DNA of 19,506 nt, taken from assembly GCA_041623475.1 (NCBI GenBank), contig JBFJWU010000014.1, positions 1-19,506 of the forward strand. Reading direction: 5' to 3'. Every line of letters starts with the position of its first letter. Positions within the stretch are counted from its first letter, which is position 1. The stretch is from JBFJWU01 sp041623475 [NCBI: bacterium]. Its GTDB lineage: Bacteria; J088. This document shows positions 240-19,506 of this stretch, in pieces. The position numbers and the translations under genes were made by a program. The notes beneath the pieces are model-generated. The model was not told the origin of the DNA. It made no database searches and was given only the letters and a program-made list of their open reading frames with translations.

Positions 240-1126
240 CGGCCGTGGTAAAAGAGGCGGTGGCACTGCTGGACAGTGAGTTCGAGAAGCTGCGCACACA
301 TGTCTACCGCCGCTGTGGCATATTTGTTGGCGACGACAAAGCCTATTTCCTTGAATCGCGGGCAATCAGTCGCATGGAAGCGCTTAACATGGACCGCTTC
401 ACAGACTATTTCCGTTACCTTGTCCTCGAGGCCGATGGCGAAGAGTACCGGCAGCTGATCAATTGTATTACCGTAAATGAAACATTTTTCTTCCGGGACT
501 ACCGGCAGTTGACCGGCTTCGCCGAAGAGATTCTTCCCAACGTGCTTGACGCGAAACGGCAGGCAAAGGACTATTCCCTGAAGATCCTCAGTGCCGGTTG
601 CTCAACGGGCGAAGAACCTTATTCGCTGGCGATCATCCTGCGGGAAATGATTCCCGATTTCGAACGCTGGGTCATCCAGATCGACGGGATTGACATCAAT
701 ACCGAGGTGCTGGAATTTGCCCAGGCGGCTCTTTATGGCAGCCGGGCCACGCGTGACATTCCCATCACCTTCCGCCTGACCTACTTTGAGGACGCCTCTG
801 GAGATACGGCCGTCAAACCTGTTGTGCGCAACATGGTGCGATTTTTGCATGTCAACATGTACAACGCCGACGAGATCAATCGCTTTGCCGGCGTAGACGT
901 AATATTCTGCCGCAACGTGCTGATCTATTTTGATGACCAGTCGCGCTCGCGCGTCTTGAATAATCTCTACAACATTCTCCAGCCCGGAGGCTACATATTT
1001 CTCGGTTACGCCGAATCGGTATCCCGCTACTCGGGTGCTTACGAAGTCATCAAGATCGGCGACCTGATTACCCACCGTCGTCCTGTACAGGCGGTGAAAC
1101 CGTTAAAAAAAGGAGATGGCTCGTGA
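236..1126 (+). CDS. cheR: Chemoreceptor glutamate methyltransferase CheR
   Basis: A 296-residue CheR, close to the usual length. It would transfer methyl groups from S-adenosylmethionine to receptor glutamates in the cytoplasm. The N-terminal helical domain runs to about residue 90 and ends in NETFFFRD (81-88), the CheR linker signature. The SAM-binding Rossmann fold carries GCSTGEEPYS (121-130), the acidic loop GIDIN (151-155) and FCRNVLIYFD (224-233). All expected motifs are intact, so it should be active. The GTG start overlaps the HEAT-gene stop (GTGA). GGGAG at 224-228 is a well-placed ribosome binding site that supports this start. The end overlaps cheY by four bases. It sits in the same operon as the tandem-MCP receptor, its probable substrate. 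It is distinct from the second CheR-like gene at 7725. Confidence 0.95.
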   Translation: MTAVVKEAVALLDSEFEKLRTHVYRRCGIFVGDDKAYFLESRAISRMEALNMDRFTDYFRYLVLEADGEEYRQLINCITVNETFFFRDYRQLTGFAEEILPNVLDAKRQAKDYSLKILSAGCSTGEEPYSLAIILREMIPDFERWVIQIDGIDINTEVLEFAQAALYGSRATRDIPITFRLTYFEDASGDTAVKPVVRNMVRFLHVNMYNADEINRFAGVDVIFCRNVLIYFDDQSRSRVLNNLYNILQPGGYIFLGYAESVSRYSGAYEVIKIGDLITHRRPVQAVKPLKKGDGS

Positions 1127-1500
1127 CCAAACGTGTATTGGCCGTCGATGATTCGAAGATGGTCCGAGACCTGATGAGCTACATGGTAGCGTCGGGTGGC
1201 TACGAAGCCGAGACCGCAGAGAACGGGGCAATGGCCTTGGAAATGCTGGCACAGCAACGGTTTGACCTGGCGCTCGTTGACCTGAATATGCCGCTGATGG
1301 ACGGTTACACTCTGGTTGAAAACATTCGTGGGAACCCTGAATGGGAGGATATTGCCGTAATTATTGTTACGACCGAGGCGGAAGCGGAGGACCGTCGCCG
1401 CGGACTTGAGGCGGGGGCCGACCTGTACCTGGTTAAACCGGTCGATGAAGTTGAGCTTCTGACCAATATCAAGATGCTGATTGGTGACCCCGATGGATAA
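1123..1500 (+). CDS. cheY: Single-domain CheY-like response regulator
   Basis: A 125-residue stand-alone receiver domain. The acidic pair is D9-D10, the phosphoacceptor is D53 in LVDLNMP, the switch Thr is at 83/84, and the conserved Lys is K105 in LVKPVD. It should accept phosphate from CheA and act as a diffusible output or a phosphate sink; no output domain is attached. The GTG start is set by AGGAG at 1111-1115 and overlaps the cheR stop (GTGA). Its TAA overlaps the cheA start by eight bases. The name follows the family. Whether it controls a motor cannot be told from the sequence, because no flagellar gene is nearby. Confidence 0.92.
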   Translation: MTKRVLAVDDSKMVRDLMSYMVASGGYEAETAENGAMALEMLAQQRFDLALVDLNMPLMDGYTLVENIRGNPEWEDIAVIIVTTEAEAEDRRRGLEAGADLYLVKPVDEVELLTNIKMLIGDPDG

Positions 1501-3532
1501 AAACAAACTTCTGCAACAATTTGTCCAGGAGGCGCGGGAACACCTGAAGCAGGTTGAGGCCCTCGTTCTTGCACTGGAAAAAGACTCAGGCAACGTGGAA
1601 ATTATCCACGAAATTTTCCAGGGGATCCACGGCATAAAAGGTGGTTCGGATTATGTTCAATTGCCCGGCATCAACAGCCTCAGCCACGAGATTGAGACGC
1701 TGCTCAACAGGCTGCGCCGCGAGAAACTGGCGGCGTCTCCTGAGCTGACAGACTTGCTGCTGGCCGGGGTCGACCTGATCAAAGATTGTATAGAAAACGT
1801 TGACGACCCCGACTATCGCGATGCCGATATCAATGACTACATTCAGCAGATCGGTGATGCGGTCGCCGAGGGCGGCACCAATGCAGTCAATCAGCCGGCC
1901 AGTGTTGCCAGGGACGTCAAAGCGGAGCTGCTGGATGTGTTCCAGACGACCGCGAATCAGCACCTGGAAACCCTGGAGATGGTGAAAACCGACCTCGAGT
2001 CCGGCGCGACGCTGGACAGTAAACTGAAACTTCTGCAGCGCTCGCTCAAGATTTTTCGGAATGCCGCGACCTACATTGATGCAGCCGGGCCGGCCGCCGC
2101 GCTGGACAACCTGCTTGACCGGATTGAACTGGACAAAGACCGACAGGAGTTCTTGCCCCATCTGGTGGCAACGATTGAGCAGCTGCGCCGGGATCTGGAG
2201 CAATTGGCGGCCCCGCACCCCGGGTCGGGTCCGGAATCAACGGCGGTAATGGCCAACAGCGACGCCGAATCAGTCCGCGATTCGGAAGCTGCGGGGACCG
2301 GGACAGGCGAAAGCGGTAGCCCCGGCCCTGCTGATGGTGATGCGACCCTGCGGGTTTCTATGCGAAAACTCGACGACTTCATGAATCTCGTTTCTGATCT
2401 GGTCCTGATCAAGAACTCGGTGTCGCATCTGATGGAACTGGCAAAAGAGGAGAAGCTCTCGGCCAAGTTTTCACGCGGACTGGCTGGCGTCTCCAACCAG
2501 GTCGCAAAAACATCCGACGGGCTGCAGGAGCAGGTCATGGCGATCCGCATGATTCCCACGAATTTCCTGTTCGAACGGTTCCCCCGGATGGCGCGCGATC
2601 TCGCCCGCAGCCACGATAAAGAGGTGCGGCTGGTTATGCTGGGCGGTGATACAGAAATCGACAAAGGGGTTGCCGAGTTGCTGGCAGAGCCCTTGATGCA
2701 TCTTATACGTAATGCGATCGCCCATGGGATCGAGGGGGGCGATGAGCGCACCAGCGCTGGAAAGGCTACCATTGGCACTGTCACCCTAAAGGCCAGCAGC
2801 ACCGGTGGAACCATTACGATTGAGGTAATCGACGATGGCCGCGGAATTGATCCGGCGCGAATCGCCGAGACAGCTCGGCGCGAAAAAGTGCTTTCGGCTG
2901 AAGAGATCGATGCGATGTCGGAGACCGAACTGGTCAACCTGCTGTTCAGACCTGGTTTTTCAACTCGGATGGCGGCAGATACGCTGTCGGGGCGGGGAGT
3001 TGGCCTTGACGCGGTTAACAGCAACGTCCGTAAACTCGGAGGCAACACACAGGTTGAGTGGGAACCCGGACACGGTACCCGCTTCAAAATCCGAATTCCA
3101 ATAACGCTCTCTGTGATCGACACCATCGTCGTGCAGGCGGGCGATTCGATGTTCGCAGTGCCGTCGAGCTTTGTCGAAGAAAATATCAGCGTGGCGCCAG
3201 ATCGCGTCTCCCGTCTCAATCATGTTCGTACCATTCTCTATGATAATCACGCCGTGCCACTGGTGCCGCTCGAGTCGGCGCTCGGCTTTCCGGATGAACG
3301 GGATGACAGCAAGGAGCACACAACGTTGATTGTCCGCCACGGCGCCGGTACCTACGGCCTGATTGTGGATCGGATCGTGGCGCAGCAGGATGCGCTAGTG
3401 CGGCCACTCGATTCGCAGTTGAGCAAACTGCAGCATTTTTCGGGAGCGACGGTCATGAATGATGGCCGCCTGGTCCTGATCCTAAATCCAGTTGGACTGA
3501 TTGGAGACTCTGCCCGGGGAGCCGCAGCGTGA
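1493..3532 (+). CDS. cheA: Chemotaxis-type histidine kinase CheA
   Basis: A 679-residue CheA from the ATG at 1493, which overlaps the cheY stop. In-frame TTG 1481 and GTG 1484 are alternatives. The N-terminal phosphotransfer domain has the phosphohistidine H46 in the HGIKGG motif. A second helical segment (about 143-238) resembles another HPt domain, but Lys186 stands where the His would be. An acidic, Gly/Ser-rich linker (about 240-284) follows, then the dimerisation helices (about 285-360). The ATPase has its N box around HLIRNAIAHG (403-412), DDGRGID (447-453), LFRPGFSTR (484-492) and GRGVGLD (500-506). A CheW-like C-terminal domain runs from about 536 to 675 and lets it join a receptor array. 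It has no membrane segment and no fused receiver. It lies between cheY and the double-receiver gene, its likely phosphate acceptors. Confidence 0.95.
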   Translation: MDKNKLLQQFVQEAREHLKQVEALVLALEKDSGNVEIIHEIFQGIHGIKGGSDYVQLPGINSLSHEIETLLNRLRREKLAASPELTDLLLAGVDLIKDCIENVDDPDYRDADINDYIQQIGDAVAEGGTNAVNQPASVARDVKAELLDVFQTTANQHLETLEMVKTDLESGATLDSKLKLLQRSLKIFRNAATYIDAAGPAAALDNLLDRIELDKDRQEFLPHLVATIEQLRRDLEQLAAPHPGSGPESTAVMANSDAESVRDSEAAGTGTGESGSPGPADGDATLRVSMRKLDDFMNLVSDLVLIKNSVSHLMELAKEEKLSAKFSRGLAGVSNQVAKTSDGLQEQVMAIRMIPTNFLFERFPRMARDLARSHDKEVRLVMLGGDTEIDKGVAELLAEPLMHLIRNAIAHGIEGGDERTSAGKATIGTVTLKASSTGGTITIEVIDDGRGIDPARIAETARREKVLSAEEIDAMSETELVNLLFRPGFSTRMAADTLSGRGVGLDAVNSNVRKLGGNTQVEWEPGHGTRFKIRIPITLSVIDTIVVQAGDSMFAVPSSFVEENISVAPDRVSRLNHVRTILYDNHAVPLVPLESALGFPDERDDSKEHTTLIVRHGAGTYGLIVDRIVAQQDALVRPLDSQLSKLQHFSGATVMNDGRLVLILNPVGLIGDSARGAAA

Positions 3533-4353
3533 AAACCGTGCTCGTGGTCGAAGACAGCGAGCTCTCGCGCGGGTTTATCTGCATGGCCTTGAGCTCGCGG
3601 CCTGATATCAAAATCATCGAAGCGAGCGATGGACAGGAGGCCTGGGAGATTTTAGAAGGCAACTGTGTGTCATTGGTCATTACCGACCTGCATATGCCAC
3701 GACTTGACGGATTCGGGCTACTGAAGAAGATTCGCGAAGCGGAACCAGTTGATGCTCATGTGCCGGTCATCGCCGTCACGACGCAAGGACAGTTGGAGAC
3801 TATGGACGCCCTGGTTGATGAAGGTGCTGACGCCTGTATCGCGAAGCCTGTAACACCCCAAGCGCTGCTGCCGCTATTGGATCGCTACCTTTCAACACAG
3901 ACGGAACCTCTGCAAAGCATTGCTCCATCAAACCCGGATCCTGGAGTAGAACCGGTATCGGGACTCGATCCGGATGAGGCTTCGGGGTTGGTTGTCATGG
4001 CCGCCGGCGCGGCCCGCGATGAAATTGTTCGCGAGCTTGCGGCGACACTTGGCGCCGAACCTCTTGTTGCCGAAACTGGAATGGAGGCCGTCGGCCAGCT
4101 TTTTCTGCACACAATTAACTATCTGCTGGTCGACATGTCGCTGCCCGGAAACGAAGCAGTCGTCTTTCTCGGGCAATTGCGTGGCAACCAGGCCTACAAT
4201 TCACTGCCGGTGGCCTTGCTGGTAACGAAAGCGGTCGAACAGGATCTTGCAGAGCTGGACAACCTTGGCGCCGATCAGATTATTCCGGAATCCGTCGGGC
4301 CGGGCAAAGTGGCCGAACTGATCGGGCAGTTTCCTCTGCGGCCTGCAGATTGA
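3529..4353 (+). CDS. Response regulator: receiver plus degenerate receiver
   Basis: A 274-residue protein with two receiver-like folds. Domain 1 (1-122) is complete: E8-D9, phosphoacceptor D53 in VITDLHMP, T84, and K106 in IAKPV. A Pro/Gly-rich linker (about 123-150) follows. Domain 2 (about 153-270) keeps an Asp at the phosphorylation position (D202 in LLVDMSLPG). It has lost the acidic pair at its first strand (VVMAAGAA), and the conserved Lys-Pro is replaced (IIPESV), so it is probably a pseudo-receiver used for binding. No DNA-binding or enzymatic output domain is present. The GTG start overlaps the cheA stop (GTGA), and the next gene follows after 11 bases. A second CheA target or an adaptor between CheA and the hybrid kinase is plausible, but this is inference. 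Confidence 0.85.
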   Translation: MKTVLVVEDSELSRGFICMALSSRPDIKIIEASDGQEAWEILEGNCVSLVITDLHMPRLDGFGLLKKIREAEPVDAHVPVIAVTTQGQLETMDALVDEGADACIAKPVTPQALLPLLDRYLSTQTEPLQSIAPSNPDPGVEPVSGLDPDEASGLVVMAAGAARDEIVRELAATLGAEPLVAETGMEAVGQLFLHTINYLLVDMSLPGNEAVVFLGQLRGNQAYNSLPVALLVTKAVEQDLAELDNLGADQIIPESVGPGKVAELIGQFPLRPAD

Positions 4354-4364: not shown

Positions 4365-7300
4365 ATGTTCATATCAGACAAGGAACACTTGACCGAAGAC
4401 CAGAAGCAACTCTTTATGATGCAGATGCTTTTCGTCTCGATCACCAAGCTGCACCAGAGCCTGGACCGCGATCGGATCAATCGCACAATTTTCGAAATAC
4501 TGACAGATTTCGTCGGTGCGGCCAAGTCGGCCCTGATTGTCCAGACAGAGTGGGACTCGGAACCTGAAGTATTCCTGCAAAGGGAGCACTCGGGAGACCC
4601 CGGCACCGATGACGCCGGGGAGCTCACGGCTGAATTAAAGCGATTGCCTCAGTTCCGGAAGGTAATGGAGACGGCCAACTCCTGGTTCTATCGCGACCTG
4701 GAAAAGGGGATCCCCCAGGCCGATGAAACGGCATTGCCGGTCGGTACGCCCCTGGTCATCTACCCGCTACTCGTGCAGCGGCGGACGGTAGGTGTTTTTT
4801 GTGTCCTCGAATTCCTGCCACAAAAAAAGCAATTGCAGGCGATTGATTACCAGTTTTTCAACCTGCTTTCAGAGCATGCCGGCAGTGCTGTTGTTAGTTC
4901 CAAACTCTACGAAAAATCGGAAACGGAATTGAGTGCCCTAAAAGGGATCAGTGAAGTGGTCATGAGCAACATTGATCTGGACGCGACCACAGCCGCTGCC
5001 CTGGATCATCTGGCACGGGTAATCGATTCCGACAGGCTCTATTTCCTGTCGCCAACCGACGAGGGGCGCAATTATCTGGTCGTTGCAGGAAAAGGTGTAA
5101 CCCACGGGCGACAAGATTTTGCCGTTTCGGCCGGGGACGAGTTGTTGGCCATGGTGCTTGCCGCTGAGGGCGAGTCCGTCTTTATCGGCCAGGAGAATAT
5201 CGGGAGCGCGGAGATCCAGTCAGATCTGGAGCCTTTGCTTGGCGCGCAGCAGCTTGCCTGCGTCGTTTCCAAAGCGGGCGAGCCGCGTGGCGTCGTTCTG
5301 CTCGTGCGGACAGAGGCCGGCAAAGAATTCACGACCCAGGACAGGCACCTGCTGAAACTTGCCTGTTCCCAGATGGCAGTGGGAATTGAAAACGCGCTGC
5401 TCTTTCGGAAGTCAGAAGAGCAGCGCGAACAACTGGCCGAAGCTCGAGCCATCGCCGAACAGGCAAGTCGCTACAAGAGCGAGTTTCTTGCCAATATGTC
5501 GCATGAAATCCGCACGCCGATGAACGCCATTATAGGCTTTACTGACCTGTTGCACGATGAGGAAACCGATCCCGAAAAACGGCGCAAGTTGAACATTATT
5601 CACACCGCCGGCGGCGATCTGCTGACAATCCTCAACGACATCCTCGATCTGTCAAAAATCGAAGCCGGCAAGATCGATGTCGTTGTCGAGCCCTTTTCCC
5701 CGCGGCACCTGCTGGAGCAAATGCGCAATGTCTTTCTGTTCAAGGCGCTGGAAAAAAACCTGGAGTTGAAAGTGACCGGTGAAATCGGTCTGCCACCATT
5801 GCTGGCAGGCGATTCGCAGCGACTGGGGCAGATCATCCTTAATATCGTCGGTAATGCGATCAAGTTTACCGAATCGGGTTCAGTGAGCCTCGAATGTGAC
5901 TGGCGCGACGACACTCTGCTTCTGAAGATCACAGATACCGGGATCGGCATGACGGAAGAGCAGGTGGCCAATGTGTTCGAGGCTTTTCGGCAGGCGGAAG
6001 CGACTACGTCGCGGACCCACGGGGGCACGGGTCTGGGCCTGACGATCAGCAAGAACCTGACTGAGATGATGAATGGTGCAATCGAAGTTCAAAGCGAGCC
6101 GGGGCAGGGGTCGATTTTTCTTTTGCGGATTCCGGCGACTGAAGTTTTCGAACCGGCGCAATTGAACGAGCCGGGAAGTCCGGAATTGATCGCAGACGGC
6201 GCCGGCAAGAGGGTTGCGATCGTCGAGGATGATCCCGCGGCAGTTGAGATGTTCAAGGCTGCACTGGACAAAGCGGGCTATGAGGCAGTGTTGATTGAGC
6301 CCAATGCTGACTTTGTCGAGCAGATTCTAGAATCCAGGATCGATGTGGTTTTGCTCGACATGGTAATTGATGGCAAGAATGGTTTGTTTTTCAATGACCT
6401 GCTTAAATCGGACGGCCGTACGGCAGCGCTGCCGGTCATCGTATGCAGTGTCGAGCCCGAGGGGGCGCTGCGCGGAACGTATGGATATTACGATTTCATC
6501 CGCAAGCCGATCGACCGGACCGAGCTACTGGCACGCGTCCGCGGGGCGTTGCGATTGGTACCTGTCCCGCGGCCGGTCTTCATCATTTCCAGTGGTGGAA
6601 ACAACGGCCAGGCCATCGAAAAACTGGTCACCAACCCCGGCCGCGAGACCCACGTATTTAGGGCTATCCGCGCTGCACTGGATGCGATAAATGGTGGTGC
6701 AGAGCCCGGGTTGGTGGTGCTCGATTCAGATGTGATGACGGGGGATGACGACGAGGCCGGTTTCATCGACCTGGCACAGGCGGCTATGCGGCGGGACATT
6801 CCGATCGTATTCATCGATCCCGAAGAGCACGAGTCCGGTGTTGAGCGGGTTCTGGATCGTGGCTATGGCTTCCTGTCACGCGACCTGCGGATGTCGCTGG
6901 CGCGGATTGAAGAGCACATCGCCCGCGAAGAAGAGGTAGGAGAGGCCATGGTGCGGGAGTGGCTTTCGGCTCAGGGTATGCCTGAACTGAAAGATCTGCT
7001 GCTTGACAATCTGCGGCAGCGCCTGTTCGGCGAAATGCAGAAGCTCGAGCATGCAATCCGGCGGGAAGACTATCAGGAAATCCAGCGCCAGGCCCATACG
7101 GTAAAAGGATGGAGCGGAACTTACAAAATGACCGAAATTTCAGATACCGTATCGGCAATAGACGAACTCGCCGGTGCGGCAACAGTCGACATGGCTGGCA
7201 TTCGTGCCCTTTCATACGAACTCGGGTTGATTTTGGCGCGGATACCGTCGCACTACGTGACCGAACGCCGCGGGCGCGGCGCGATCAACAGGGGCAATAG

Positions 7301-7718
7301 CGGCGTCCAGCGCGACTGCCCGAAAGACTATCGCGTGCTGGTCGTGGACGACAACGAAATGAACCTGATGCTGCTCAATACCCTGTTGGACCGCTGGTCG
7401 GTGCCCTATGACACGGCGATAAATGGCCGGGAGGCGCTGGACGCGCTGCGCGGCAACAGCTACGATTGTGTTTTCCTGGATATGGAGATGCCGGTGATGA
7501 ACGGATGGGAAGCGATTGCCGAAATCCGCAGCGACGAAACGTTGGCCGGCAATTTTGTAATCGCACTGACAGCGCATGCGATGGGCGGCATGAAGGAAAA
7601 ATGCCTGGCGGCAGGGTGCGACGAATACCTGACCAAGCCGCTGGATAAAGCAGCGTTTTACGAAATCCTTGATCGGCGCTTGAAAGCGTTTGAGCATCGA
7701 GCAGCAGCATCCGGATGA
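4365..7718 (+). CDS. Soluble hybrid histidine kinase (GAF-GAF-HisKA-HATPase-REC-REC-HPt-REC)
   Basis: An 1117-residue multidomain phosphorelay protein with no membrane segment. Two GAF-like domains (about 25-185 and 200-345) lead into a short coiled coil. HisKA carries phospho-His H380 in SHEIRTPMN. The ATPase has N497 in the N box, DTGIGM at 524 and GGTGLGL from 553. Receiver 1 has E621-D622-D623, D665 and K714. Receiver 2 (about 738-850) keeps D787 in VVLDSD but lacks the acidic pair and is probably degenerate. An HPt domain follows with H911 in QAHTVKG, then a complete C-terminal receiver with D995-D996, D1039 and K1091. The order, with a receiver after the HPt, is less usual than the REC-HPt ending. 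The ATG start is 11 bases after the preceding stop, with only a weak ribosome binding site. Its place inside the operon suggests that it feeds a second, intracellular signal into the CheA circuit. Confidence 0.93.
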   Translation: MFISDKEHLTEDQKQLFMMQMLFVSITKLHQSLDRDRINRTIFEILTDFVGAAKSALIVQTEWDSEPEVFLQREHSGDPGTDDAGELTAELKRLPQFRKVMETANSWFYRDLEKGIPQADETALPVGTPLVIYPLLVQRRTVGVFCVLEFLPQKKQLQAIDYQFFNLLSEHAGSAVVSSKLYEKSETELSALKGISEVVMSNIDLDATTAAALDHLARVIDSDRLYFLSPTDEGRNYLVVAGKGVTHGRQDFAVSAGDELLAMVLAAEGESVFIGQENIGSAEIQSDLEPLLGAQQLACVVSKAGEPRGVVLLVRTEAGKEFTTQDRHLLKLACSQMAVGIENALLFRKSEEQREQLAEARAIAEQASRYKSEFLANMSHEIRTPMNAIIGFTDLLHDEETDPEKRRKLNIIHTAGGDLLTILNDILDLSKIEAGKIDVVVEPFSPRHLLEQMRNVFLFKALEKNLELKVTGEIGLPPLLAGDSQRLGQIILNIVGNAIKFTESGSVSLECDWRDDTLLLKITDTGIGMTEEQVANVFEAFRQAEATTSRTHGGTGLGLTISKNLTEMMNGAIEVQSEPGQGSIFLLRIPATEVFEPAQLNEPGSPELIADGAGKRVAIVEDDPAAVEMFKAALDKAGYEAVLIEPNADFVEQILESRIDVVLLDMVIDGKNGLFFNDLLKSDGRTAALPVIVCSVEPEGALRGTYGYYDFIRKPIDRTELLARVRGALRLVPVPRPVFIISSGGNNGQAIEKLVTNPGRETHVFRAIRAALDAINGGAEPGLVVLDSDVMTGDDDEAGFIDLAQAAMRRDIPIVFIDPEEHESGVERVLDRGYGFLSRDLRMSLARIEEHIAREEEVGEAMVREWLSAQGMPELKDLLLDNLRQRLFGEMQKLEHAIRREDYQEIQRQAHTVKGWSGTYKMTEISDTVSAIDELAGAATVDMAGIRALSYELGLILARIPSHYVTERRGRGAINRGNSGVQRDCPKDYRVLVVDDNEMNLMLLNTLLDRWSVPYDTAINGREALDALRGNSYDCVFLDMEMPVMNGWEAIAEIRSDETLAGNFVIALTAHAMGGMKEKCLAAGCDEYLTKPLDKAAFYEILDRRLKAFEHRAAASG

Positions 7719-7724: not shown

Positions 7725-9329
7725 GTGAGCCGGCTTTACCGTGTAGAATCAACTGACCTGCCAATCACCTTTGACGTGCCTGATCGGCCTGCACCGCGCT
7801 CTCCTTTCCCGCATTCGAATTACCTAAACGTGGTGCGTATGGCCATTTCGAGCAATCCTGTTGTTCCCCCTCCTGCTACAGTCGCGCAGTTGTCTGATAT
7901 TCGACAAATGGTCCATCGTCGTCTGGGTTGGCCGCCCGCTCTTGCCAGTCATGGCGACGATCGTGTTGCTGAGTTGGTCGCGGCAGGCATGACCGATGCC
8001 GGTATCGCCTCGCCAATTGCTTATCTGGCTGAACTGCAACGCGCTGACTCTCCCCTTTGGGGCTGGATTTATGCAAATTGGACTGTGGGGGAAAGCTATT
8101 TTTTTCGCACCGACAAGCATACAGCCTGGCTGAAAGATTGCTGGCTTCCGTCTCTGATTGCGGCGACGTGGCAAAGCGAGCAGCCGCGGATTCGTGTCTG
8201 GAGCGTGGGCTGCGCCGATGGCCAGGAACTGTATTCGATTGCCATGCTGATTGCTGATGTTTTGCCCGAGTCGGAGCGCGGCGGTATTTCACTACTTGGC
8301 ACAGATATCAGCGAGCAGTCGCTGGCAGCAGCGCGCCTGGGCTGCTACCGAAGTCTCTCGCTCCGGCGCGTCTCGGCAGAGACCACCGGGCTCTATTTCG
8401 AGCGCAGCGAACGGGGCTGGCAGCTCTCTCCAGAGATCAAGGCGTTGGCGACATTCGAACAGGCGAATTTCGGCGGGCAGCACGCTTGGTGCCATAAAAA
8501 CCAGTTTGACCTGATTCTTTGCCGAAATCTCGCAATCTACCTGGCGCCTGAGGCGATCCGGAGCATGCTGTCCTGTTTCTCCAGCACACTGGCAGATTCC
8601 GGGTTGTTGCTGTTTGGCGATTCAGATCTTGCACATGTTCGCTCGCCGGAGTCGCGTTCCGAGCTCGAAGGTAATTTCGATTTCCGGCGTTGCGGCATGG
8701 GTCTTAGGGTAGAACTCGGCATGCGCCGGTTGACTGTTGGCGAAGGCGAGAGCGGCGACCAGGTCGACAACACTGCAGGACCTCTGGCAAGGACCGAACA
8801 GTTCAATCGCGTTGCCAATCCGTTTGCCTGTACTGTTGACGGCCTGCTGGCGGCCGGTCGACCAGAAGCAGCTGTCGCGGCAATCCACTGGCGTACGATG
8901 GAAGAGGGGTTGACGGCACGGCGTACCCGGCAAATGGCCCAGGCGCGTTTCAATCAGCGCAGTTTCGTCGAGGCGGGGGACCTGGTCGACGACGCTATGC
9001 GGCAAGCGTGCGAGGCCGGAGTGCCTGATCCCTATTGCGACATTCTCAAGGCGCGACTGGAGCTCGGGCGAGGCGATTTTGAGCTTGCGTTCGACAGCCT
9101 GGCCGGCGAAGGTCATGGCAGGGGCCTGGTTGAAGCTGATGCCCTCTTCATAGAAATTGCCGTTGCGGCAGGACGTGGTTCAGAATGCGCCGGTCGTATT
9201 GACAGATTGCAGGCACGACTCGACACGTCCGGATGGAATGGTCCATCTCTGGCGTTCGAGCGCATTACTGTCCGTGGTTATGCGGAGGGCGTGATTCGCT
9301 CGTGGCGAGCCGTGGAAGCCGCAGGGTGA
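7725..9329 (+). CDS. Second CheR-like methyltransferase with helical (TPR-like) C-terminus
   Basis: A 534-residue CheR-family protein. The linker motif is VGESYFFRTD (121-130), the SAM-binding loop GCADGQELYS (162-171), the acidic loop GTDIS (192-196), and the late motif LCRNLAIYL (265-273). Compared with the other CheR here, the loop has Gln for the first Glu of GEE and Leu for Pro, so catalysis may be altered. From about residue 365 onward the sequence is Ala/Leu-rich and helical, resembling TPR repeats that bind partners, as in the CheR-TPR proteins of FrzF type. The GTG start lies six bases after the hybrid-kinase stop, with GAGG at 7716-7719. The ATG at 7839 (residue 39) is a credible alternative, because residues 1-38 show no family resemblance. 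It is the last gene of the operon. Confidence 0.85.
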   Translation: MSRLYRVESTDLPITFDVPDRPAPRSPFPHSNYLNVVRMAISSNPVVPPPATVAQLSDIRQMVHRRLGWPPALASHGDDRVAELVAAGMTDAGIASPIAYLAELQRADSPLWGWIYANWTVGESYFFRTDKHTAWLKDCWLPSLIAATWQSEQPRIRVWSVGCADGQELYSIAMLIADVLPESERGGISLLGTDISEQSLAAARLGCYRSLSLRRVSAETTGLYFERSERGWQLSPEIKALATFEQANFGGQHAWCHKNQFDLILCRNLAIYLAPEAIRSMLSCFSSTLADSGLLLFGDSDLAHVRSPESRSELEGNFDFRRCGMGLRVELGMRRLTVGEGESGDQVDNTAGPLARTEQFNRVANPFACTVDGLLAAGRPEAAVAAIHWRTMEEGLTARRTRQMAQARFNQRSFVEAGDLVDDAMRQACEAGVPDPYCDILKARLELGRGDFELAFDSLAGEGHGRGLVEADALFIEIAVAAGRGSECAGRIDRLQARLDTSGWNGPSLAFERITVRGYAEGVIRSWRAVEAAG

Positions 9330-12982: not shown

Positions 12983-15028
12983 ATGGCGGAAAAAGACAAC
13001 GAAAAAAAAGGAAAGCAGCCCGGGGAGATTCCGGACGACTCTGGCGTTGAAGCCAAGGCAGCCAAGTCAGGCAAGAAAAAAATGCCACCACTGCCAGAAG
13101 GCGCCTCGCAATCCCCCGTAAAGCAGAAGACTGCTGGTCGTGTCGGCAAGGGGATTGACAATAGCGTCAAGGAACAGCGGGCTCGGGCCCGGCGCAAGGC
13201 CCAGCAGCTGAAGTCCAACCTCCGCAACCGTTCGACCGAAGAGATCCTCGGTACTGTGGTGACGTCTGCGGCCGAGTTGCAGGCGGCGACACAGGAGATC
13301 TCCTCATCGGGGCAGGAGCTTGCATCGACCATGGACGAGATCTCGTCGGCAGCACGACAAGCGGCAGCTGCAACCGCGCAGTCGACTTCGGCCGTCGCCC
13401 AGGTTTTGAGCGCTTCCCAGCAATCGCGCGAAGCGACGAATCTCTCGCTGCAGAAAATGGAGGATGTCGAACGCCTGGTGCAGGTCTCTGTCGAGTCGAT
13501 GGGTGAACTGGTCGCCGGAATCAATATGGCACTTAACTTCAACACAACGTCAGCCGAAAACGTCCGCGCGGTTCAGGAGAACTCGCGTCGGGTACGTGAG
13601 ACAGCACAAGCCGTCGCTTCGATTGCCGAGCAGATCAACCTTTTTGCATTTAACGCGGCGCTCGAGGCATCGCGTGCCGGGGAATTCGGGGGCGGATTTT
13701 CGATCGTTTCGGACGAGGTGCGGGCCCTGGCACAGCAGGCAGCTGCGGCATCGGCGAACATCGACACGATCCTCGAAGATATTGATGGGGCAGTTGTACA
13801 AGTTGTCGGTGATATCGAAAAATCGGTCACTGACAGCCGGGCCTGGGCCGATGAAGCCAATGCGCTTGCTGAGGCGCTGTCAAAAAGCACGTCCCGCATG
13901 ACGGCGGTCCGCCAGAGCGCCAGCGAGATAGATGTGGCCGCAACCGAACTTGCCAACGTCATGCAAGGGGTAGACGCCGCCGCCGGCGAAATCAACGAAA
14001 TGACGGAGCAGGCAGAGTCGGCCGCCGTCGAATCAAGCAGTGTGCTTGTCGAACAGCAGAGCGCCTTGCGCGGGATTCAGGATGCTTCCGATGAGCTTCT
14101 GGTAAAGACCGAGGCGGTTCGCAGCGGAGATGACGGAGATGAGGTTTTCGCCGAAATAGGCACGATTACCGACGAGCTTTCCGCAACCATCCAGGAGGCG
14201 GCCAGTTCTGCCGAGCAGATCAACGCCGCGGTGTCCCAGATTGCTCGCGCGGCCGACGTACTGGCAGCCCAGGCCGAGGCAAACGTGCCGGTCGTGCAGC
14301 GGGCGCGCAGCCGCGTCGGCGATATAGCGCAGCGCGCGGCATCGTCAGAAAATGCCGTCACCGAATTGCGCGTGCTGCTGGTTGAAAACGCCGAAAAAAT
14401 GAACAGCGTCGTGGAAAATGTCGGTAGCGCAGCGGAACAGAATTTACATTACGCGGCAAATATCAAGCAGCTTCAGGCCGAGGTGCTGCGGATCGATGAG
14501 GTGATCGACTCGTTGATCTCTATTTCCGTAATGACCAATCTGCTCAGCGTGAGCGGCCGGATCGAAGGTGTCCGGGCCGGCGAGTCGGGAGCCGGATTCA
14601 CAACTGTCTCCGAGGATATTCGGCAGCTTGCACAAGACACTACGAGCAATGTCAGTGCTGCGCGCCGAATGATTCGCGACATCCAACTGGCGGTTAGCGA
14701 TGTAGTCACCGACCTGGAAAAAGCCGGAGTTGCTGTTCGCAGTGAAGCGGACAAGGCGAATCGGATAGCATCGCAGCTGCTGGTGATTGACGACGACATG
14801 GCGGCTATTCTTTCGGGGGTTCTGGAAATAAGCGCCGCGACCGCAGAGGCAGAACAGGGAATTCCCCAGATCGAACAGGCAATAGAATCGATTGCCCAGG
14901 CATCCAACCAGACTGCGGCGGCGATGACAGAAGCCTCGTCTGCAGCGTCCGAGCAATCCATGGCAATGAGTGAACTGGCGGATTCAGTGGATGATTTGGC
15001 AATGCAGCTGGGTGCATTGAAGCGGTGA
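12983..15028 (+). CDS. Soluble chemoreceptor with two tandem MCP signalling modules
   Basis: A 681-residue methyl-accepting protein with no membrane segment and no recognisable sensor domain. Residues 1-90 are charged and Lys-rich. The rest is two Ala-rich coiled-coil hairpins. Tip 1 (214-234) includes INLFAFNAALEASRAGE; tip 2 (514-534) includes TNLLSVSGRIEGVRAGE. Sites fitting the methylation consensus lie at Q111-E112 (SSSGQELAST) and E411-Q412 (ASSAEQINAA). Tips, sites and flanking segments are all exactly 300 residues apart, which shows an internal duplication without net insertion or deletion. Tip 1 keeps the N-A-A of canonical tips; tip 2 does not. The ATG at 12983 is chosen because the frame upstream reads leader and promoter DNA; GAAAGG at 12964-12969 is a distant ribosome binding site. 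It is the first gene of the operon, and its stop overlaps the CheW gene (GTGA). Confidence 0.92.
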   Translation: MAEKDNEKKGKQPGEIPDDSGVEAKAAKSGKKKMPPLPEGASQSPVKQKTAGRVGKGIDNSVKEQRARARRKAQQLKSNLRNRSTEEILGTVVTSAAELQAATQEISSSGQELASTMDEISSAARQAAAATAQSTSAVAQVLSASQQSREATNLSLQKMEDVERLVQVSVESMGELVAGINMALNFNTTSAENVRAVQENSRRVRETAQAVASIAEQINLFAFNAALEASRAGEFGGGFSIVSDEVRALAQQAAAASANIDTILEDIDGAVVQVVGDIEKSVTDSRAWADEANALAEALSKSTSRMTAVRQSASEIDVAATELANVMQGVDAAAGEINEMTEQAESAAVESSSVLVEQQSALRGIQDASDELLVKTEAVRSGDDGDEVFAEIGTITDELSATIQEAASSAEQINAAVSQIARAADVLAAQAEANVPVVQRARSRVGDIAQRAASSENAVTELRVLLVENAEKMNSVVENVGSAAEQNLHYAANIKQLQAEVLRIDEVIDSLISISVMTNLLSVSGRIEGVRAGESGAGFTTVSEDIRQLAQDTTSNVSAARRMIRDIQLAVSDVVTDLEKAGVAVRSEADKANRIASQLLVIDDDMAAILSGVLEISAATAEAEQGIPQIEQAIESIAQASNQTAAAMTEASSAASEQSMAMSELADSVDDLAMQLGALKR

Positions 15029-16548
15029 CGAGCGAACCTGCCAGCGGGGCGCCGGACGGGAGTTTCCTGTTTTTCGGCATCGGCCCCAACCGATACGGAC
15101 TGCCAACAAGCCAGGTGCCGGAGGTGCTGTTGCGCGGCGATATGACCGAGGTGCCCGGATCTCCTGATTATATTGAGGGCGTGATGAACTATCGTGGCCG
15201 GATCATCCCGGTCGTCAATGGCCAGTCGCGGCTCAAACTGGAGGTCGAGTCGGCTGCTGGACAGTTGATTATCCTTGATGCAGACGGTTTTTCTGCCGGC
15301 CTGCTGGTTGATCGGGTGTTGGAGATCGGCGCCGTGAAGACGGAAGAGACGGATGCCACCCCCGATGTGATCAACGATGGCACCGCCGGGCTTTTTTCCG
15401 GGCTGGCGCGGCGTGATGGCAATTTAGTGGGGCTGCTGGATGTCGCTGCGTTGGTCGACTTTGAGCTCGACCAGCAATTGCACAGAGAGCTCGAGGTCGA
15501 CCGGCGACAACGCAGGGTTCGCGCATCAACCCGGGATGCTGCAGACGGCCGTCTTTTTGCCGTTGTGCGTGTGGGTGACGAAGAGTATGGCCTGGATGCT
15601 GGCCTGGTTTTTGAAGTGGTCGGGGCCCTGGCGACGGAGCGGCCGGGTCGAGTTCCCGGATATGTTTCTGGCCTGGCGCCATTCCGCAACCAGACGATCG
15701 CCGTGATCAACATGCGCAAAAGGTTGGGTGCTCGAGGAACGGCTGCCGGGGCTCCGGGCAGCGTGGTAATCGTAGAAAGCGCCGGCACCCTGGTCGGCGC
15801 TGAGGTAGACGAAATCGTCGAAATCGTGGCGTTCCCCGAATCGGGCATGAAACCGATCCCCGATCTGATTCGCGGCGAAAATGACCACTTGGCCAACGTG
15901 GCAATCGACGAACTGAGCGGCAGGGTCATCGCAGTGATTGATACGGATCGCTTGATCAAGTCCGAACACTTGAAACGAATCGACAAACTGAAAGAAAAAG
16001 CTATGCCGAGCGAACAAGAGCCGGCGGAGTCGAGCGCTCGCGCCGAAGCAGATACAGAACTGGTTGTCTTCTCTGTCAACGATACCCACTTTGCCCTGCG
16101 CAGCGAACAGGTCCGCGAAATCCTGGCCGCGCAGCAGACGACGTGGGTGCCCTACGCACCGCCGTACATCGATGGCGTGTTCCAGCTGCGCGGCGAGGTG
16201 ATTGCCAGCGTCAACATCTGGAAGCGGCTCAATCTGGCAGATTCCGACCTGCAAGACAAGACTGGAAAAATGTTGATCATCGCTCGCGATGGGGAGCATT
16301 ATGCACTGCACATAGAAAAGCTCGAAGAGATTCGCCGAATTCCCAGCAACCAGATCGAGCCGCCACCAGGAATTGTCCAGGGCGTCGAGGCACGGTTCCT
16401 GAGCGGTATCGCTGCGACCGAGGACAGCACTATCCTGCTGCTGGACCCCTCGGTGTTATTTGATCGAACGATCGACATGCAGAAAGAAGACAGTCCGGGA
16501 ACCGGCTCGGCCAGGGGGGACGATGATCGCGGAACACCGGCAAACTGA
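15025..16548 (+). CDS. Triple-CheW scaffold protein
   Basis: A 507-residue protein of three CheW domains in a row (about 12-148, 176-315 and 344-482) joined by charged linkers. Single CheW proteins are about 150-180 residues and link receptor tips to CheA. Each domain shows the core pattern of a Pro-containing turn, an Arg-led loop and a hydrophobic strand: NYRGRIIPVVN (55-65), PFRNQTIAVINM (219-230) and QLRGEVIASVNIW (387-399). Domain 2 has Asn for the usual Gly after the Arg. The GTG start overlaps the receptor stop. It ends inside the start of cheB. Three docking surfaces in one chain next to a two-tip receptor suggest a multivalent array connector; this is inference. Confidence 0.9.
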   Translation: MTSEPASGAPDGSFLFFGIGPNRYGLPTSQVPEVLLRGDMTEVPGSPDYIEGVMNYRGRIIPVVNGQSRLKLEVESAAGQLIILDADGFSAGLLVDRVLEIGAVKTEETDATPDVINDGTAGLFSGLARRDGNLVGLLDVAALVDFELDQQLHRELEVDRRQRRVRASTRDAADGRLFAVVRVGDEEYGLDAGLVFEVVGALATERPGRVPGYVSGLAPFRNQTIAVINMRKRLGARGTAAGAPGSVVIVESAGTLVGAEVDEIVEIVAFPESGMKPIPDLIRGENDHLANVAIDELSGRVIAVIDTDRLIKSEHLKRIDKLKEKAMPSEQEPAESSARAEADTELVVFSVNDTHFALRSEQVREILAAQQTTWVPYAPPYIDGVFQLRGEVIASVNIWKRLNLADSDLQDKTGKMLIIARDGEHYALHIEKLEEIRRIPSNQIEPPPGIVQGVEARFLSGIAATEDSTILLLDPSVLFDRTIDMQKEDSPGTGSARGDDDRGTPAN

Positions 16549-17683
16549 GCATCGCCCTGTCGTGACGAATAAACGAAAGATCAGGGTGCTCGTCGTTGAT
16601 GACTCCGAGTTGATGCGCCGCGAGATAAGTCGTGGACTGCGAGCAAACCGGCGGATTTCAGTAGTTGGCACCGCCGAGAACGGTGAGCAGGCGCGCGAAC
16701 TGGCCCGGGAGCTCAATCCCGATGTGATTACGCTGGACGTCAATATGCCCGGCATGGATGGATTGACCTGTTTGCAATACATCATGATCGAAAATCCAAC
16801 GCCCTGTGTCATTGTCAGTGCCCTGACCGACGAAAGTGCGATCGAAACTTTCGAAGCCTACGAGCTTGGTGCCGTGGCTGTGGTTGAAAAGCCTCGCCAG
16901 AGCAAGGGCGAACCGCTGCAGTTATTCAAGCGGCGCCTGGCCGCCAACATCATACGTGCCAGCCACGTTGACATGGAAAACCTGACACGCGCCGAGTTAA
17001 GCGCAGCTGTCGGTCCGAAAAGCCGTCAGGTGCCGATGGTTGACCAGCAGCCAGAGGGCCGCATTGCCCGACGGGTGGTTGTGATCGGCGCCAGCACCGG
17101 GGGGCCGCGTACGTTGATGGATGTGATTCCCGGTCTGCCACCTAACCTGGGCGCCGCAGTCATCGTGATCCAGCATATGCCAGGAAGCTTCACCGGGGCC
17201 TATGCCCGGCGGCTGAACGACTATTCGCAACTGCCGGTTCACGAGGCCAGGCAGGGAGAGTTGGTGATCGAGAACCACGTTTACATCGCACCGGGCGACT
17301 ATAACCTCAGCATCAAGCGTACCGGGACCGGCCACCGCTCGGAGATCGTTCTGGAAGAGGGAAGTGGCGACGAATTCATTGTGCCGTCGTTTGATGTCGC
17401 GCTCGACTCGGTCATTGAAGTTTATGGGAAACGTACCTGCGGCGTGGTCCTGACGGGGCTGGGCAACGATGGTGCCAAGGCGATGGCCAGGTTGCACGGC
17501 ATGGGCGGTACCACTATCGCCGAATCAGAAATATCGGCGGTGATCTACGGAATGCCAAAAGCGGTCGTAGACCTGAAGGCGGCAAGCCGGATTGTCCCGA
17601 GCCGGAAAGTTGCCGAAGCCATTGTCGAAACTATGCCGCGAGCGAATGGCGACGATGATGCCCCCGAGAACAGTCGTGAGTGA
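16523..17683 (+). CDS. cheB: Chemoreceptor methylesterase/deamidase CheB
   Basis: A 386-residue CheB. The N-terminal receiver has D26-D27, phosphoacceptor D72 in TLDVNMPGMDG and K123 in VEKP. After a linker (about 145-182), the esterase domain has the catalytic triad Ser191 in GASTGGP, His218 in QHMP and Asp316 in GLGNDG. It should remove methyl groups from receptor glutamates when phosphorylated by CheA. I chose the ATG at 16523 because AGGGGGG (16513-16519) precedes it; an in-frame extension to 16460 lies wholly within the CheW gene, and GTG 16562 is a shorter alternative. It overlaps the CheW gene by 26 bases and the HEAT gene by about eight. It is the only methylesterase here, against two CheR-type proteins. 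Confidence 0.95.
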   Translation: MIAEHRQTEHRPVVTNKRKIRVLVVDDSELMRREISRGLRANRRISVVGTAENGEQARELARELNPDVITLDVNMPGMDGLTCLQYIMIENPTPCVIVSALTDESAIETFEAYELGAVAVVEKPRQSKGEPLQLFKRRLAANIIRASHVDMENLTRAELSAAVGPKSRQVPMVDQQPEGRIARRVVVIGASTGGPRTLMDVIPGLPPNLGAAVIVIQHMPGSFTGAYARRLNDYSQLPVHEARQGELVIENHVYIAPGDYNLSIKRTGTGHRSEIVLEEGSGDEFIVPSFDVALDSVIEVYGKRTCGVVLTGLGNDGAKAMARLHGMGGTTIAESEISAVIYGMPKAVVDLKAASRIVPSRKVAEAIVETMPRANGDDDAPENSRE

Positions 17684-19506
17684 CCTGCGCCAATTGACCG
17701 CCGCCGAGCTGCAGGTCATCCTGGCAGACCCGGCTGACCCACAGTGCGGCTTTGCCGCCCTCGAACTCGGTCGGCGAAACGACTCTGACAGCATCCCGGC
17801 GCTAATTGCCTGCCTGCAAGTGGCCGACCGCGGCGTTGCAGAATCGGCCGAGGCCGCCCTGGTCTCGATCGGTGGTGAGCACTTGAGCGCCCAGTTACAG
17901 GATTGCCTGCGTTCGGAAGACCTTGGCCTGCGCAACCTGGCGATTGGCATTCTTGAAAAGCTGGGCGATGATGCGGTCGAAACCGTAACACCTCTGGTTA
18001 AGGACACTGACCCCGATATCCGGTTGTTCGCCTTGGAGATTCTGCTGCGGATAGGCCGGCCTTCGGTGCTTGCACCAGTGCTCCAGGCACTTGATGACGA
18101 GAACGTAAACGTGGCAACGGCTGCGGCCCGGTCCCTGGGCGCACTTGGGATGGGGGAAGCAGTTAACTTCCTGGTGCCCTGCCTGGAGCGGGAAAACTGG
18201 CTGGCTTGTGCAGCGGCGACCAGTCTGGGCCAGCTTGGCGGCGAGGACGCGTTGCGGGCCTTGATGGAATTGCCGGAAAGTGCCCCGGGTACCTTGCGCT
18301 TTGCTGCGATTTCAGCACTCGGAGAGCTGGGCGATCCATCGGCAATCAACTATCTCAGGACAGTCGTTGGTTCGGGGCCCGGTCCGCTGAAAGAGCTGGC
18401 CGTACAGGCAACCGTCCAGATTCTTGACAAAGCCTATAACGAGATTGTCGACGACGCCGCAGAATACCTCGGTATTGAAACGCTGATCAAATTTCTGAAG
18501 TCGAAGAGCGAAAACACCGTTCGCAGTACGGCGAGCCTGCTGGCTAAATTGAAACGAGAAGGCCTTGAGGCCGCTCTCTACGAACTGCTTCTGGAGGATG
18601 ATCGCGAACTGAATGTCCATTTAGAGCAGATCCTGGTTCAGCGTGAACTCGAAGAGTTGCGCCCATTGGTACGGATCCTGGATAACCGTTCCCTCTCGTT
18701 TCATACACACCGAACCTGCGTGCGGGCCCTGGCGGCCACCGGCCAGGACGAGGCGATTGAGGCGCTGGTGGCGCATCTGCGTTACGGCGACGCGGGGCTG
18801 AAGATGGAGTTGGTCAGGGCATTGGGCCAGTTCAACACGCCTGAATCGATCGCCGCGATTGTCCGCCAGACCGAGGCAAAAGATGAATTCGTCCGCTGCA
18901 CATTGGCGGAAATTCTTGACCCGAACCGATCGGAAGATGAATTTGCTGCTGCGATGCAACTTTGTGGTGACGCGTCAGCCGCCGTGCGCAACAAGGTGCG
19001 AGAGCGGTTCGGACGACTGATGAACAGCGAGCTGCGTTCCCGCCTGCTGGCGGAACTTGAGGAAGCAAAGGGTGTCACGCTGGAGACCCTGGTGGCGCTG
19101 CTTGGATCAGGCACGGACCGCGATCTGGCTGAGCGGTTGCAGCAGATGCTGCCGGATGCGGACGAAGGCCTGTTTGCGGCAATCCTCCGGGCCCTGCCAA
19201 ACGTCGTCGACGACCTTGGTGAGGCGGCGGTTGAGCAGCTTTCGTTGATTTTGAAGGAGCGGCTGAAAGATTCGAACGCCGGGATTCGCCTGGCAGCTGT
19301 AAAGGCACTGCGTCATTTCCACACCGGAGTTGCCGCGAACGATTTCCTTGAGTTGGTTGAAAGTGACGCGGCACCGCGGGTTGCTTACGAGGCAGCGATG
19401 TCTTTGCGGCGTTATCGGTCCGTAGAGCTGGAGGCAACTTTAGTCGAGTTGCTCGAAGATCTGTCTCCGTATGTCCAGACCGCTTTGATTGAGTTCCTCG
19501 CCGAAT
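17676..19506 (+). CDS. HEAT-repeat scaffold protein, N-terminal part (continues at 1-239)
   Basis: An open frame runs off the window's right edge and continues, across the circle join, to the TGA at 237-239, giving 642 residues. The whole chain is built of helical pairs with HEAT / PBS-lyase-like repeats, for example VADRGVAESAEAALVSIG, DTDPDIRLFALEILLRIG, DDENVNVATAAARSLGALG and ESAPGTLRFAAISALGELG, spaced about 30-38 residues. Such solenoids bind proteins. No catalytic motif, signal peptide or membrane segment is seen. GTG 17676 overlaps the cheB stop and gives MSDLRQL; in-frame ATGs at 17646, 17655 and 17658 are possible starts. Lying between cheB and cheR, it may position methylation enzymes or the array. 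HEAT-like proteins occur in some alternative chemosensory clusters; the exact role here is unknown. Confidence 0.9.
   Translation, partial: MSDLRQLTAAELQVILADPADPQCGFAALELGRRNDSDSIPALIACLQVADRGVAESAEAALVSIGGEHLSAQLQDCLRSEDLGLRNLAIGILEKLGDDAVETVTPLVKDTDPDIRLFALEILLRIGRPSVLAPVLQALDDENVNVATAAARSLGALGMGEAVNFLVPCLERENWLACAAATSLGQLGGEDALRALMELPESAPGTLRFAAISALGELGDPSAINYLRTVVGSGPGPLKELAVQATVQILDKAYNEIVDDAAEYLGIETLIKFLKSKSENTVRSTASLLAKLKREGLEAALYELLLEDDRELNVHLEQILVQRELEELRPLVRILDNRSLSFHTHRTCVRALAATGQDEAIEALVAHLRYGDAGLKMELVRALGQFNTPESIAAIVRQTEAKDEFVRCTLAEILDPNRSEDEFAAAMQLCGDASAAVRNKVRERFGRLMNSELRSRLLAELEEAKGVTLETLVALLGSGTDRDLAERLQQMLPDADEGLFAAILRALPNVVDDLGEAAVEQLSLILKERLKDSNAGIRLAAVKALRHFHTGVAANDFLELVESDAAPRVAYEAAMSLRRYRSVELEATLVELLEDLSPYVQTALIEFLAE
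19366..19506. repeat. Terminal direct repeat, right copy (circle overlap)
   Basis: Identical to 1-141. The base before this copy (19365) continues the HEAT-repeat frame, and the bases after position 141 at the other end of the window complete that gene through to its stop at 237-239. One of the two copies should be dropped when the sequence is used as a circle. Confidence 0.95.

What the first reader, a model, noticed from the sequence alone, without database searches (positions are those of the whole stretch)
12983..15028. Chemoreceptor with an exact 300-residue internal duplication: two complete MCP hairpins in one soluble chain
The tips begin at residues 214 and 514, methylation-consensus pairs are at 111/112 and 411/412, and segments such as ELQAATQEI/ELSATIQEA (98/398) and the E-x6-E-Q region (350-358/650-658) line up with a constant offset of 300. 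The spacing has been kept with no net indel although the sequences have diverged strongly, implying selection on coiled-coil register. Tip 2 has lost the canonical N-A-A while tip 1 keeps it, so the two tips may bind different CheW domains or partners.
Basis: seen in the sequence. Interest (0 to 1): 0.75.

Follow-up and report, generated by a model that had tools for sequence, protein, structure and literature searches.

The report
Divergent DosM-type double-headed chemoreceptor
This gene makes a soluble bacterial chemoreceptor with two signalling rods in one chain, a diverged member of the known DosM scaffold family, and sequence covariation across the family suggests that the two unlike rods pair with each other rather than each with its own copy.

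Summary
The 681-residue protein at 12983-15028 aligns to itself at offset 300 over 297 residues without a gap (27.6% identity), has no membrane segment and holds two MCP signalling hairpins. It is not a new kind: it sits directly before a three-domain CheW, the signature pair (DosM + CheW3) of the published F9 chemosensory class, and is a very divergent member (29% identity or less to 60 relatives).

What I add: 60 of 64 distinct full-length receptors have tip-to-tip spacing of exactly 300; the other four (297 or 299) differ in the linker. First hairpins form one clade and second hairpins another (34 of 34 each). The variant second tip is a family trait (Gly in 64 of 64), not local decay. Against a phylogeny-aware null, three of the four inter-hairpin arm pairs covary in register about as strongly as the arms within a hairpin (weaker in mid-arm in a replicate). 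This favours hairpin 1 packing on hairpin 2, within one chain or as a swapped antiparallel rod, over homotypic bundles. No contact or partner was tested directly.

The parts
12983..15028 (+). DosM-type double-signalling-domain chemoreceptor gene, 681 aa
12983..13159 (+). residues 1-59: Lys/Pro-rich tail; the stretch before hairpin 1 is longer than in the 8 relatives aligned (their start codons were not checked)
13160..13255 (+). residues 60-91: predicted helical extension before hairpin 1 with a basic motif (R at position 66 in 48 of 61 and at 70 in 52 of 61 aligned receptors)
13256..14122 (+). hairpin 1 (residues 92-380)
13301..13330 (+). methylation-consensus string, residues 107-116
13622..13732 (+). 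tip 1 (residues 214-250), canonical N-A-A
14123..14143 (+). inter-hairpin linker (residues 381-387), predicted helix break at 381-384; the linker length changes of four relatives lie at 384-386
14144..15025 (+). hairpin 2 (residues 388-681)
14180..14230 (+). methylation-consensus strings, residues 400-409 and 407-416
14522..14632 (+). tip 2 (residues 514-550), variant tip with Gly525 and Asp545, each in 64 of 64
15025..16548 (+). CheW3: three concatenated CheW domains, 507 aa, overlapping the receptor's stop codon
16460..17683 (+). CheB methylesterase (receiver + CheB domains); an in-frame ATG lies at about 16523
17676..19506 (+). HEAT-repeat protein, open at the window end (610+ aa)
236..1126 (+). 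CheR methyltransferase
1123..1500 (+). CheY-like receiver
1481..3532 (+). CheA (Hpt, H-kinase_dim, HATPase, CheW)
3529..4353 (+). double receiver protein
4365..7718 (+). hybrid histidine kinase (GAF, HisKA, HATPase, receivers, Hpt)
7725..9329 (+). second CheR with a long C-terminal region that has no Pfam match

Best explanation
The gene encodes a divergent DosM, the scaffold receptor of an F9-class cytoplasmic chemosensory array, working with the CheW3 made by the next gene and the CheA, CheR and CheB of the same region (family shown by sequence; function inferred). Hairpin 1 and hairpin 2 arose by one old duplication (supported by the tree). They most likely pack against each other in register, forming one four-helix bundle with one canonical tip (tip 1) and one variant tip (tip 2) side by side at its signalling end (inferred from covariation and from two AlphaFold2 monomer models). 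The pairing can be within one chain (about 22 nm long) or between two antiparallel chains that swap hairpins (about 44 nm, a mixed tip pair at each end); the lengths are my estimates from about 147 residues per arm. The second form would fit the published view that DosM spans two CheA/CheW baseplates and would make both baseplates alike. The fixed tip asymmetry would then set which hairpin faces the trimer axis and which faces CheW/CheA (inference). No sensor domain was found, so input must come from partner receptors or cytoplasmic proteins (inference).
For: Family: the next gene has three CheW domains in 15 of 15 examined (window plus 14 named loci), and CheB, CheR and CheA follow in 13 of the 14 named loci (the L012 locus ends after CheW3, and the CheA of L001 is cut by the locus end). 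One duplication: H1 34 of 34 and H2 34 of 34 monophyletic (FastTree supports 0.876 and 0.988), both together separated from 30 single MCPs (0.999). Length: spacing 300 in 60 of 64. Covariation, 58 sequences, null = tree + site rates + site profiles (pair-wise null from 700 simulations; block null from 200 more): near-minus-far z is N1-C1 11.8 and N2-C2 10.7 (positive controls), N1-C2 10.8, C1-N2 8.8, N1-N2 9.8, C1-C2 5.2, none reached in 200 simulations. The exact register ranks first for N1-C2 (sum 768, 1 of 166), N1-N2 (offset 300, 1 of 163) and C1-C2 (300, 1 of 169) and sixth of 166 for C1-N2; for the controls it ranks 7 and 4 of 166. Middle third: N1-C2 z 4.2, C1-N2 3.8, N1-N2 2.6, C1-C2 0.0; base third: 4.0, 2.6, 3.3, -0.2. 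Replicate with 40 non-redundant sequences, no window protein, 20-letter MI: N1-C2 and N1-N2 again rank first, whole-block z 6.7 to 11.1 for the four inter-hairpin pairs. AlphaFold2, window protein: pLDDT 90.9, pTM 0.65, helix broken at the linker and at tip 2, the turn of tip 1 being read as helix. Single-chain helical bundles superpose on ranges that begin in hairpin 1 and end in hairpin 2 (PilJ periplasmic region 129 residues, 2.3 A, Z 14.6, model 138-509; McpZ sensing domain 160 residues, 2.8 A, Z 12.2, model 1-622). A second member (L045: pLDDT 89.8, pTM 0.66, broken only at the linker) behaves alike (talin bundle 132 residues, 2.9 A, Z 12.4, model 149-524).
Against: A first, cruder statistic without a pair-specific null did not show even the positive controls (z 0.5 and 0.6), and of the inter-hairpin pairs only N1-C2 stood out clearly (z 4.0; C1-N2 1.2, N1-N2 2.0, C1-C2 1.4), so the result depends on the better null. 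In the replicate the exact register for C1-N2 ranked only 19 of 169 (peaks at 766, 771, 773, 775), and middle-third z for the inter-hairpin pairs fell to 1.2-2.6 while the controls gave 3.3 and 4.5; there C1-C2 (1.5) is not below N1-N2 (1.2). In the tip third N1-C2 has only z 2.2. The null does not model lineage-specific composition or selection that acts on a whole layer. AlphaFold2 saw one chain only, so it could not build a homotypic dimer; I had no coordinates, and the side-by-side packing is inferred from aligned ranges, of which only first and last residue are given, at Z values near or below the level the tool calls common for helical bundles. For L045 the PilJ and McpZ matches were poor (6.6 and 11.8 A). 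A published review describes V. [quoted passage not shown] the compact form alone would not give that. The tree used 30 single MCPs picked by similarity to the profile.
Confidence: 0.62

Rival explanations
1. Parallel homotypic rod: two DosM chains run side by side, hairpin 1 pairs with hairpin 1 at one baseplate and hairpin 2 with hairpin 2 at the other, so the two baseplates differ chemically.
For: cryoET is reported to show an extended rod with a signalling domain at each end between baseplates 35 nm apart (PMC7534058; PMC3964821, passages). The two tips differ throughout the family.
Against: It predicts no in-register covariation between the hairpins in mid-arm, which was seen (weaker in the replicate). 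It does not by itself require equal hairpin lengths. Helices break at the linker in both models.
Confidence: 0.25
2. The inter-hairpin covariation is an artefact of lineage-specific selection by layer (for example tuning of the methylation region with CheR/CheB), and says nothing about pairing. (This overlaps with the other readings: it would leave the pairing open.)
For: The effect is spread over about 10-15 residues either side of the register, and the null assumes one fixed profile per site. In the replicate C1-C2 is about as strong in mid-arm as N1-N2 (1.5 and 1.2).
Against: C1-C2, whose positions are homologous, shows none in the middle and base thirds (z 0.0 and -0.2) while N1-C2 and C1-N2 do. 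Single-residue register peaks rank first in three of four inter-hairpin blocks and in two of four in the replicate.
Confidence: 0.3
3. Hairpin 2 is a decaying, non-signalling copy kept only as a spacer.
For: The window's tip 2 departs from the family consensus at several sites (S522, R526, G529, V530).
Against: Tip 2 has its own fixed residues in 64 of 64 (Gly525, Asp545, Glu528), hairpin 2 of the window has methylation-consensus strings, and the family shows almost no indels.
Confidence: 0.06

Closest known systems
DosM (VC1403) with triple CheW (VC1402), F9 system of Vibrio cholerae (PMC7534058: passages and section 7; original 2016 paper not held)
   Same: Two signalling domains in tandem, soluble, encoded with a concatenated triple CheW and a CheA. 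Three of 187 genomes sampled from the genus of locus L026 (Vibrio ulleungensis) have the same family, all three with spacing 300.
   Different: The window protein is far diverged (29% identity or less to the relatives held), has a Lys-rich N-tail and a long HEAT-repeat neighbour, and its che genes are split into two blocks. I did not compare it with VC1403 itself.
Rhodospirillum centenum Che2 system (MCP2, tripartite CheW; PMC2890560 passages; PMC4692393 section 26)
   Same: Tripartite CheW and, according to PMC4692393, a soluble single-chain receptor.
   Different: Its mcp2 deletion is reported as hyper-flagellated; no such role is known for the window's genes, and its sequence was not compared here.
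Engineered single-chain Tsr~Tsr receptors (PMC4692393: abstract, sections 23 and 26, passages)
   Same: Two receptor subunits in one chain that can signal as a unit; subunit swapping was seen.
   Different: Engineered from copies of one subunit with membrane and HAMP parts; here the halves are unlike and soluble.
Thermotoga maritima MCP cytoplasmic domain (PDB 2ch7)
   Same: Best match among solved structures by sequence (1.4e-14) and a single-hairpin fold match (302 residues, 4.0 A, on hairpin 2).
   Different: One hairpin per chain; that it dimerises with its own copy is recalled.

Membership tests
DosM / F9 chemosensory class | two MCP signalling domains in tandem in one chain | tested here: met
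DosM / F9 chemosensory class | no membrane or sensor domain (98% of DosM homologues hold only two signalling domains, PMC9321776 passages) | tested here: met
   hydropathy maximum 1.44; Pfam finds only MCPsignal above its cut-off
DosM / F9 chemosensory class | gene paired with a concatenated triple CheW | tested here: met
   window CheW has 3 domains; 14 of 14 named relatives likewise
DosM / F9 chemosensory class | CheA, CheR and CheB in the same cluster | tested here: met
   all present, in two blocks separated by about 3.65 kb
DosM / F9 chemosensory class | common descent of both hairpins with those of other members | tested here: met
   window_h1 falls in the H1 clade and window_h2 in the H2 clade
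DosM / F9 chemosensory class | forms a two-baseplate cytoplasmic array | not testable with these tools
   needs cryo-electron tomography
DosM / F9 chemosensory class | direct sequence relation to VC1403 | not tested
   VC1403 was not fetched; homologues in 3 of 187 genomes of a Vibrio genus sample were
ACF (alternative cellular function) chemosensory class | multidomain response regulators and CheR-TPR (PMC3447774 passages) | tested here: inconclusive
   a double receiver and a hybrid kinase are present, but the long CheR has no TPR match, and DosM/CheW3 point to F9

The most novel reading that the evidence does not exclude
DosM is a built-in heterodimer: hairpin 1 always pairs with hairpin 2, and in arrays two chains swap hairpins antiparallel, so every end of the rod shows one canonical and one variant tip. 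The variant tip fixes which half faces the trimer axis and which faces CheW3/CheA, an asymmetry that ordinary homodimeric receptors can only take up on assembly, and both baseplates become equivalent.
Probability: 0.35. Interest if true: 0.7.

Novelty: new member of a known kind. Interest (0 to 1): 0.45.

Why it matters
In ordinary receptor arrays the two identical subunits of a dimer take up different places (trimer axis or periphery; PMC4692393 abstract). A natural receptor whose two halves are unlike and pair with each other would be a ready-made tool to assign those roles, and would bear on how DosM spans two baseplates. The gene itself is an ordinary, if very divergent, member of a known family.

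Tried and rejected
Chance heptad periodicity: rejected by offsets and shuffles. A locally new architecture: rejected once relatives with the same gene pair appeared in plasmids. Literature: brought up PMC4692393 (and listed PMC9321776, which I did not open until later); one search gave nothing on this; the name DosM, recalled, led to the F9 papers. The naive diagonal statistics mostly reflected site variability and were replaced by a pair-specific null. Array height (35 nm for V. cholerae F9, 31 nm for Tar fragments) does not separate compact from swapped forms by my estimate, because both put about 22 nm in each layer. Foldseek's top full-length matches had very large rmsd and were not used. 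TTYH channels, pore-forming toxins and other helical proteins rank high in the VIA lists as generic bundles and are not taken as relatives. No NCBIfam model reached its cut-off for the receptor or the CheW3. The window's organism was not identified: no whole genome is held for it. I found no paper proposing pairing of hairpin 1 with hairpin 2 (searches; open-licence papers only); Briegel et al. 2016 and Wuichet and Zhulin 2010 were not held and not read. Further papers seen as passages only and not needed for the argument: PMC8466855, PMC6746300, PMC7184735, PMC11940527, PMC10613068; PMC8100600 held none of the terms looked for (45).

Rows dropped before counts: duplicates and fragments (L015/L097, L101, L151, L154, L155) from the set of distinct receptors; L135, L138 and L159 from the covariation set (58 of 61), and in the replicate also the window and near-duplicates (40 used). 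The three Vibrio-genus sequences (L160-L162) came later and are in the 64 but not in the covariation. The genome surveys mostly scored only the best few candidates per genome, the samples overlap and most include the genome they were centred on, so their counts are rough.

Full report
The observation. The frame at 12983-15028 encodes 681 aa. Comparing the protein with itself, offset 300 stands alone: 27.6% identity over 297 ungapped columns, best local score 318 against at most 65 in 40 shuffles. Pfam finds two MCP signalling stretches and a hydropathy scan finds no membrane helix.

What it is. The plasmid collection gave eight relatives whose receptor gene is followed by a triple CheW, CheB, in some a HEAT-repeat protein, CheR and CheA. 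In 14 of 14 named double receptors (eight from plasmids, six) the next gene has three CheW domains, as in the window. One further hit, L007 (Ruegeria), has a long CheW with no annotated receptor gene beside it and was not counted. This gene pair is the published signature of the F9 class: DosM, with two signalling domains in tandem, and CheW3 (PMC9321776, passages; PMC7534058, passages). PMC9321776 reports full F9 clusters in 64 of 2781 species. R. centenum Che2 also has a tripartite CheW (PMC2890560, passages), and natural soluble single-chain receptors were noted in 2015 with roles unknown (PMC4692393, section 26). So the gene is a new, very divergent member of a known kind: 29% identity or less to the 60 other members aligned, and the longest terminal branch in the tree of 64.

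Surveys. With a profile of 13 double receptors, matches were found in 5 of 385 genomes of the class of a Microvirga locus, 9 of 369 of the class of an Alteromonas locus, 4 of 199 of the phylum of an Acidobacteriaceae locus, 5 of 60 of the genus of a Bradyrhizobium locus, 2 of 4 (order), 2 of 158 (order), 9 of 119 (family), 18 of 201 (order, some fragmentary), 8 of 299 (phylum) and 3 of 187 (genus of a Vibrio locus). The samples overlap, most include the genome they were centred on, and in most only the best few candidates per genome were scored. Full-length double receptors scored 608 bits or more and the best single MCP 174 in the first set; later full-length ones went down to 425 (L159).

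Conservation. Of 64 distinct full-length receptors, 60 have exactly 300 residues from tip to tip, two have 299 and two 297. In the 61 available the core shows no length change outside the linker, except a local out-and-in shift in L159 (no net change) and missing ends in L135 and L138. First hairpins form one clade and second hairpins another, each 34 of 34, and together they stand apart from 30 single MCPs. Tip 1 is canonical. Tip 2 has its own fixed features: Gly in the middle of N-A-A (64 of 64) and Asp (64 of 64) where tip 1 has Glu (54) or Thr (10), while the Glu and Arg that correspond to Tsr E385 and R388 (numbering recalled) stay in 64 and 63 of 64. The variant tip is therefore an old specialisation. 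The three CheW domains also look old: in a tree of 45 domains from 15 CheW3 proteins, 13 of 15 first domains and 13 of 15 second domains form clean groups (window and L012 outside), and 14 of 15 third domains group together with the window's first domain among them and L012's outside (support 0.625); domain borders came from a profile seeded mostly with third domains.

How the halves are arranged. Two AlphaFold2 monomer models (window protein: pLDDT 90.9, pTM 0.65; L045: 89.8, 0.66) superpose with single-chain helical bundles over ranges that begin in hairpin 1 and end in hairpin 2, which I read as hairpins lying side by side. This is weak: no coordinates were at hand, the Z values are of a size common for helical bundles, and one chain has no other partner to bind. 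I therefore tested covariation in 58 sequences against alignments simulated on their tree with each site's own rate and residue profile. The two arms within one hairpin, which must touch, served as positive controls (z 11.8 and 10.7). Between hairpins the same contrast gave 10.8 (N1-C2), 8.8 (C1-N2), 9.8 (N1-N2) and 5.2 (C1-C2). The exact register expected for a side-by-side bundle ranked first in three of four inter-hairpin blocks and sixth in the other; in the two control blocks it ranked 7 and 4, with higher diagonals within a few residues and, for N2-C2, one at 1092. By thirds of the arm from tip to base, N1-C2 has z 2.2, 4.2, 4.0; C1-N2 5.4, 3.8, 2.6; N1-N2 5.2, 2.6, 3.3; C1-C2 1.9, 0.0, -0.2. 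A replicate with 40 non-redundant sequences, no window protein and another measure agreed in the main (whole-block z 6.7-11.1; N1-C2 and N1-N2 rank first), but mid-arm z was only 1.2-2.6 and C1-N2 ranked 19 at the exact register. A cruder first statistic had failed to show even the positive controls.

Reading. Heterotypic pairing explains the equal hairpin lengths, the near-absence of indels and the fixed unlike tips. It can be met within one chain or by two antiparallel chains swapping hairpins. The swapped rod would also fit the description, in a review, of an extended rod between baseplates 35 nm apart (PMC7534058). Engineered single-chain Tsr receptors do swap subunits (PMC4692393 abstract), and that paper raises the question whether natural ones do (section 26). 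I did not read the original DosM paper (not held), so I cannot say how its authors arranged the chains.

Limits. No contact has been shown directly. The null ignores lineage-wide shifts. The function of the window's system is unknown: it has CheR, CheB and methylation-consensus strings, so adaptation is likely, and a double receiver and a hybrid kinase nearby suggest extra outputs (inference).

Noticed in passing
window 9330-12982: About 3.65 kb of unrelated DNA separates the two halves of the che gene set: a truncated HpaB C-terminal frame (minus strand), a ParE-like toxin gene with what looks like a small frame before it, and a Fic gene on the minus strand.
   Followed up: partly
window 9770-10309 (-): Frame matching only the C-terminal two thirds of the 4-hydroxyphenylacetate 3-hydroxylase profile (68-202 of 202), probably a gene remnant.
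   Followed up: no
window 10248-10304 and 12219-12282: Two diverged copies of a short direct repeat, about 1.97 kb apart, flanking the ParE-like and Fic genes.
   Followed up: no
window 17676-19506: The HEAT-repeat neighbour is at least 610 aa and runs off the window; in L011 the gene in the same place is 213 aa.
   Followed up: partly
window 12983-13243: Residues 1-87 are rich in Lys and Arg (15 K, 7 R against 12 D+E), a basic tail before the first hairpin; its role, possibly nucleic-acid or layer contact, is unknown.
   Followed up: no
   Followed up: no
L012: A double receptor and triple CheW on a contig titled Paenibacillus sp. MAG; misbinning is possible.
   Followed up: no
L005 15442-16293 and L009 15514-16275: ParA-family genes lie at the end of the F9-like clusters of Methylosinus and Methylobacterium plasmids.
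   Followed up: no
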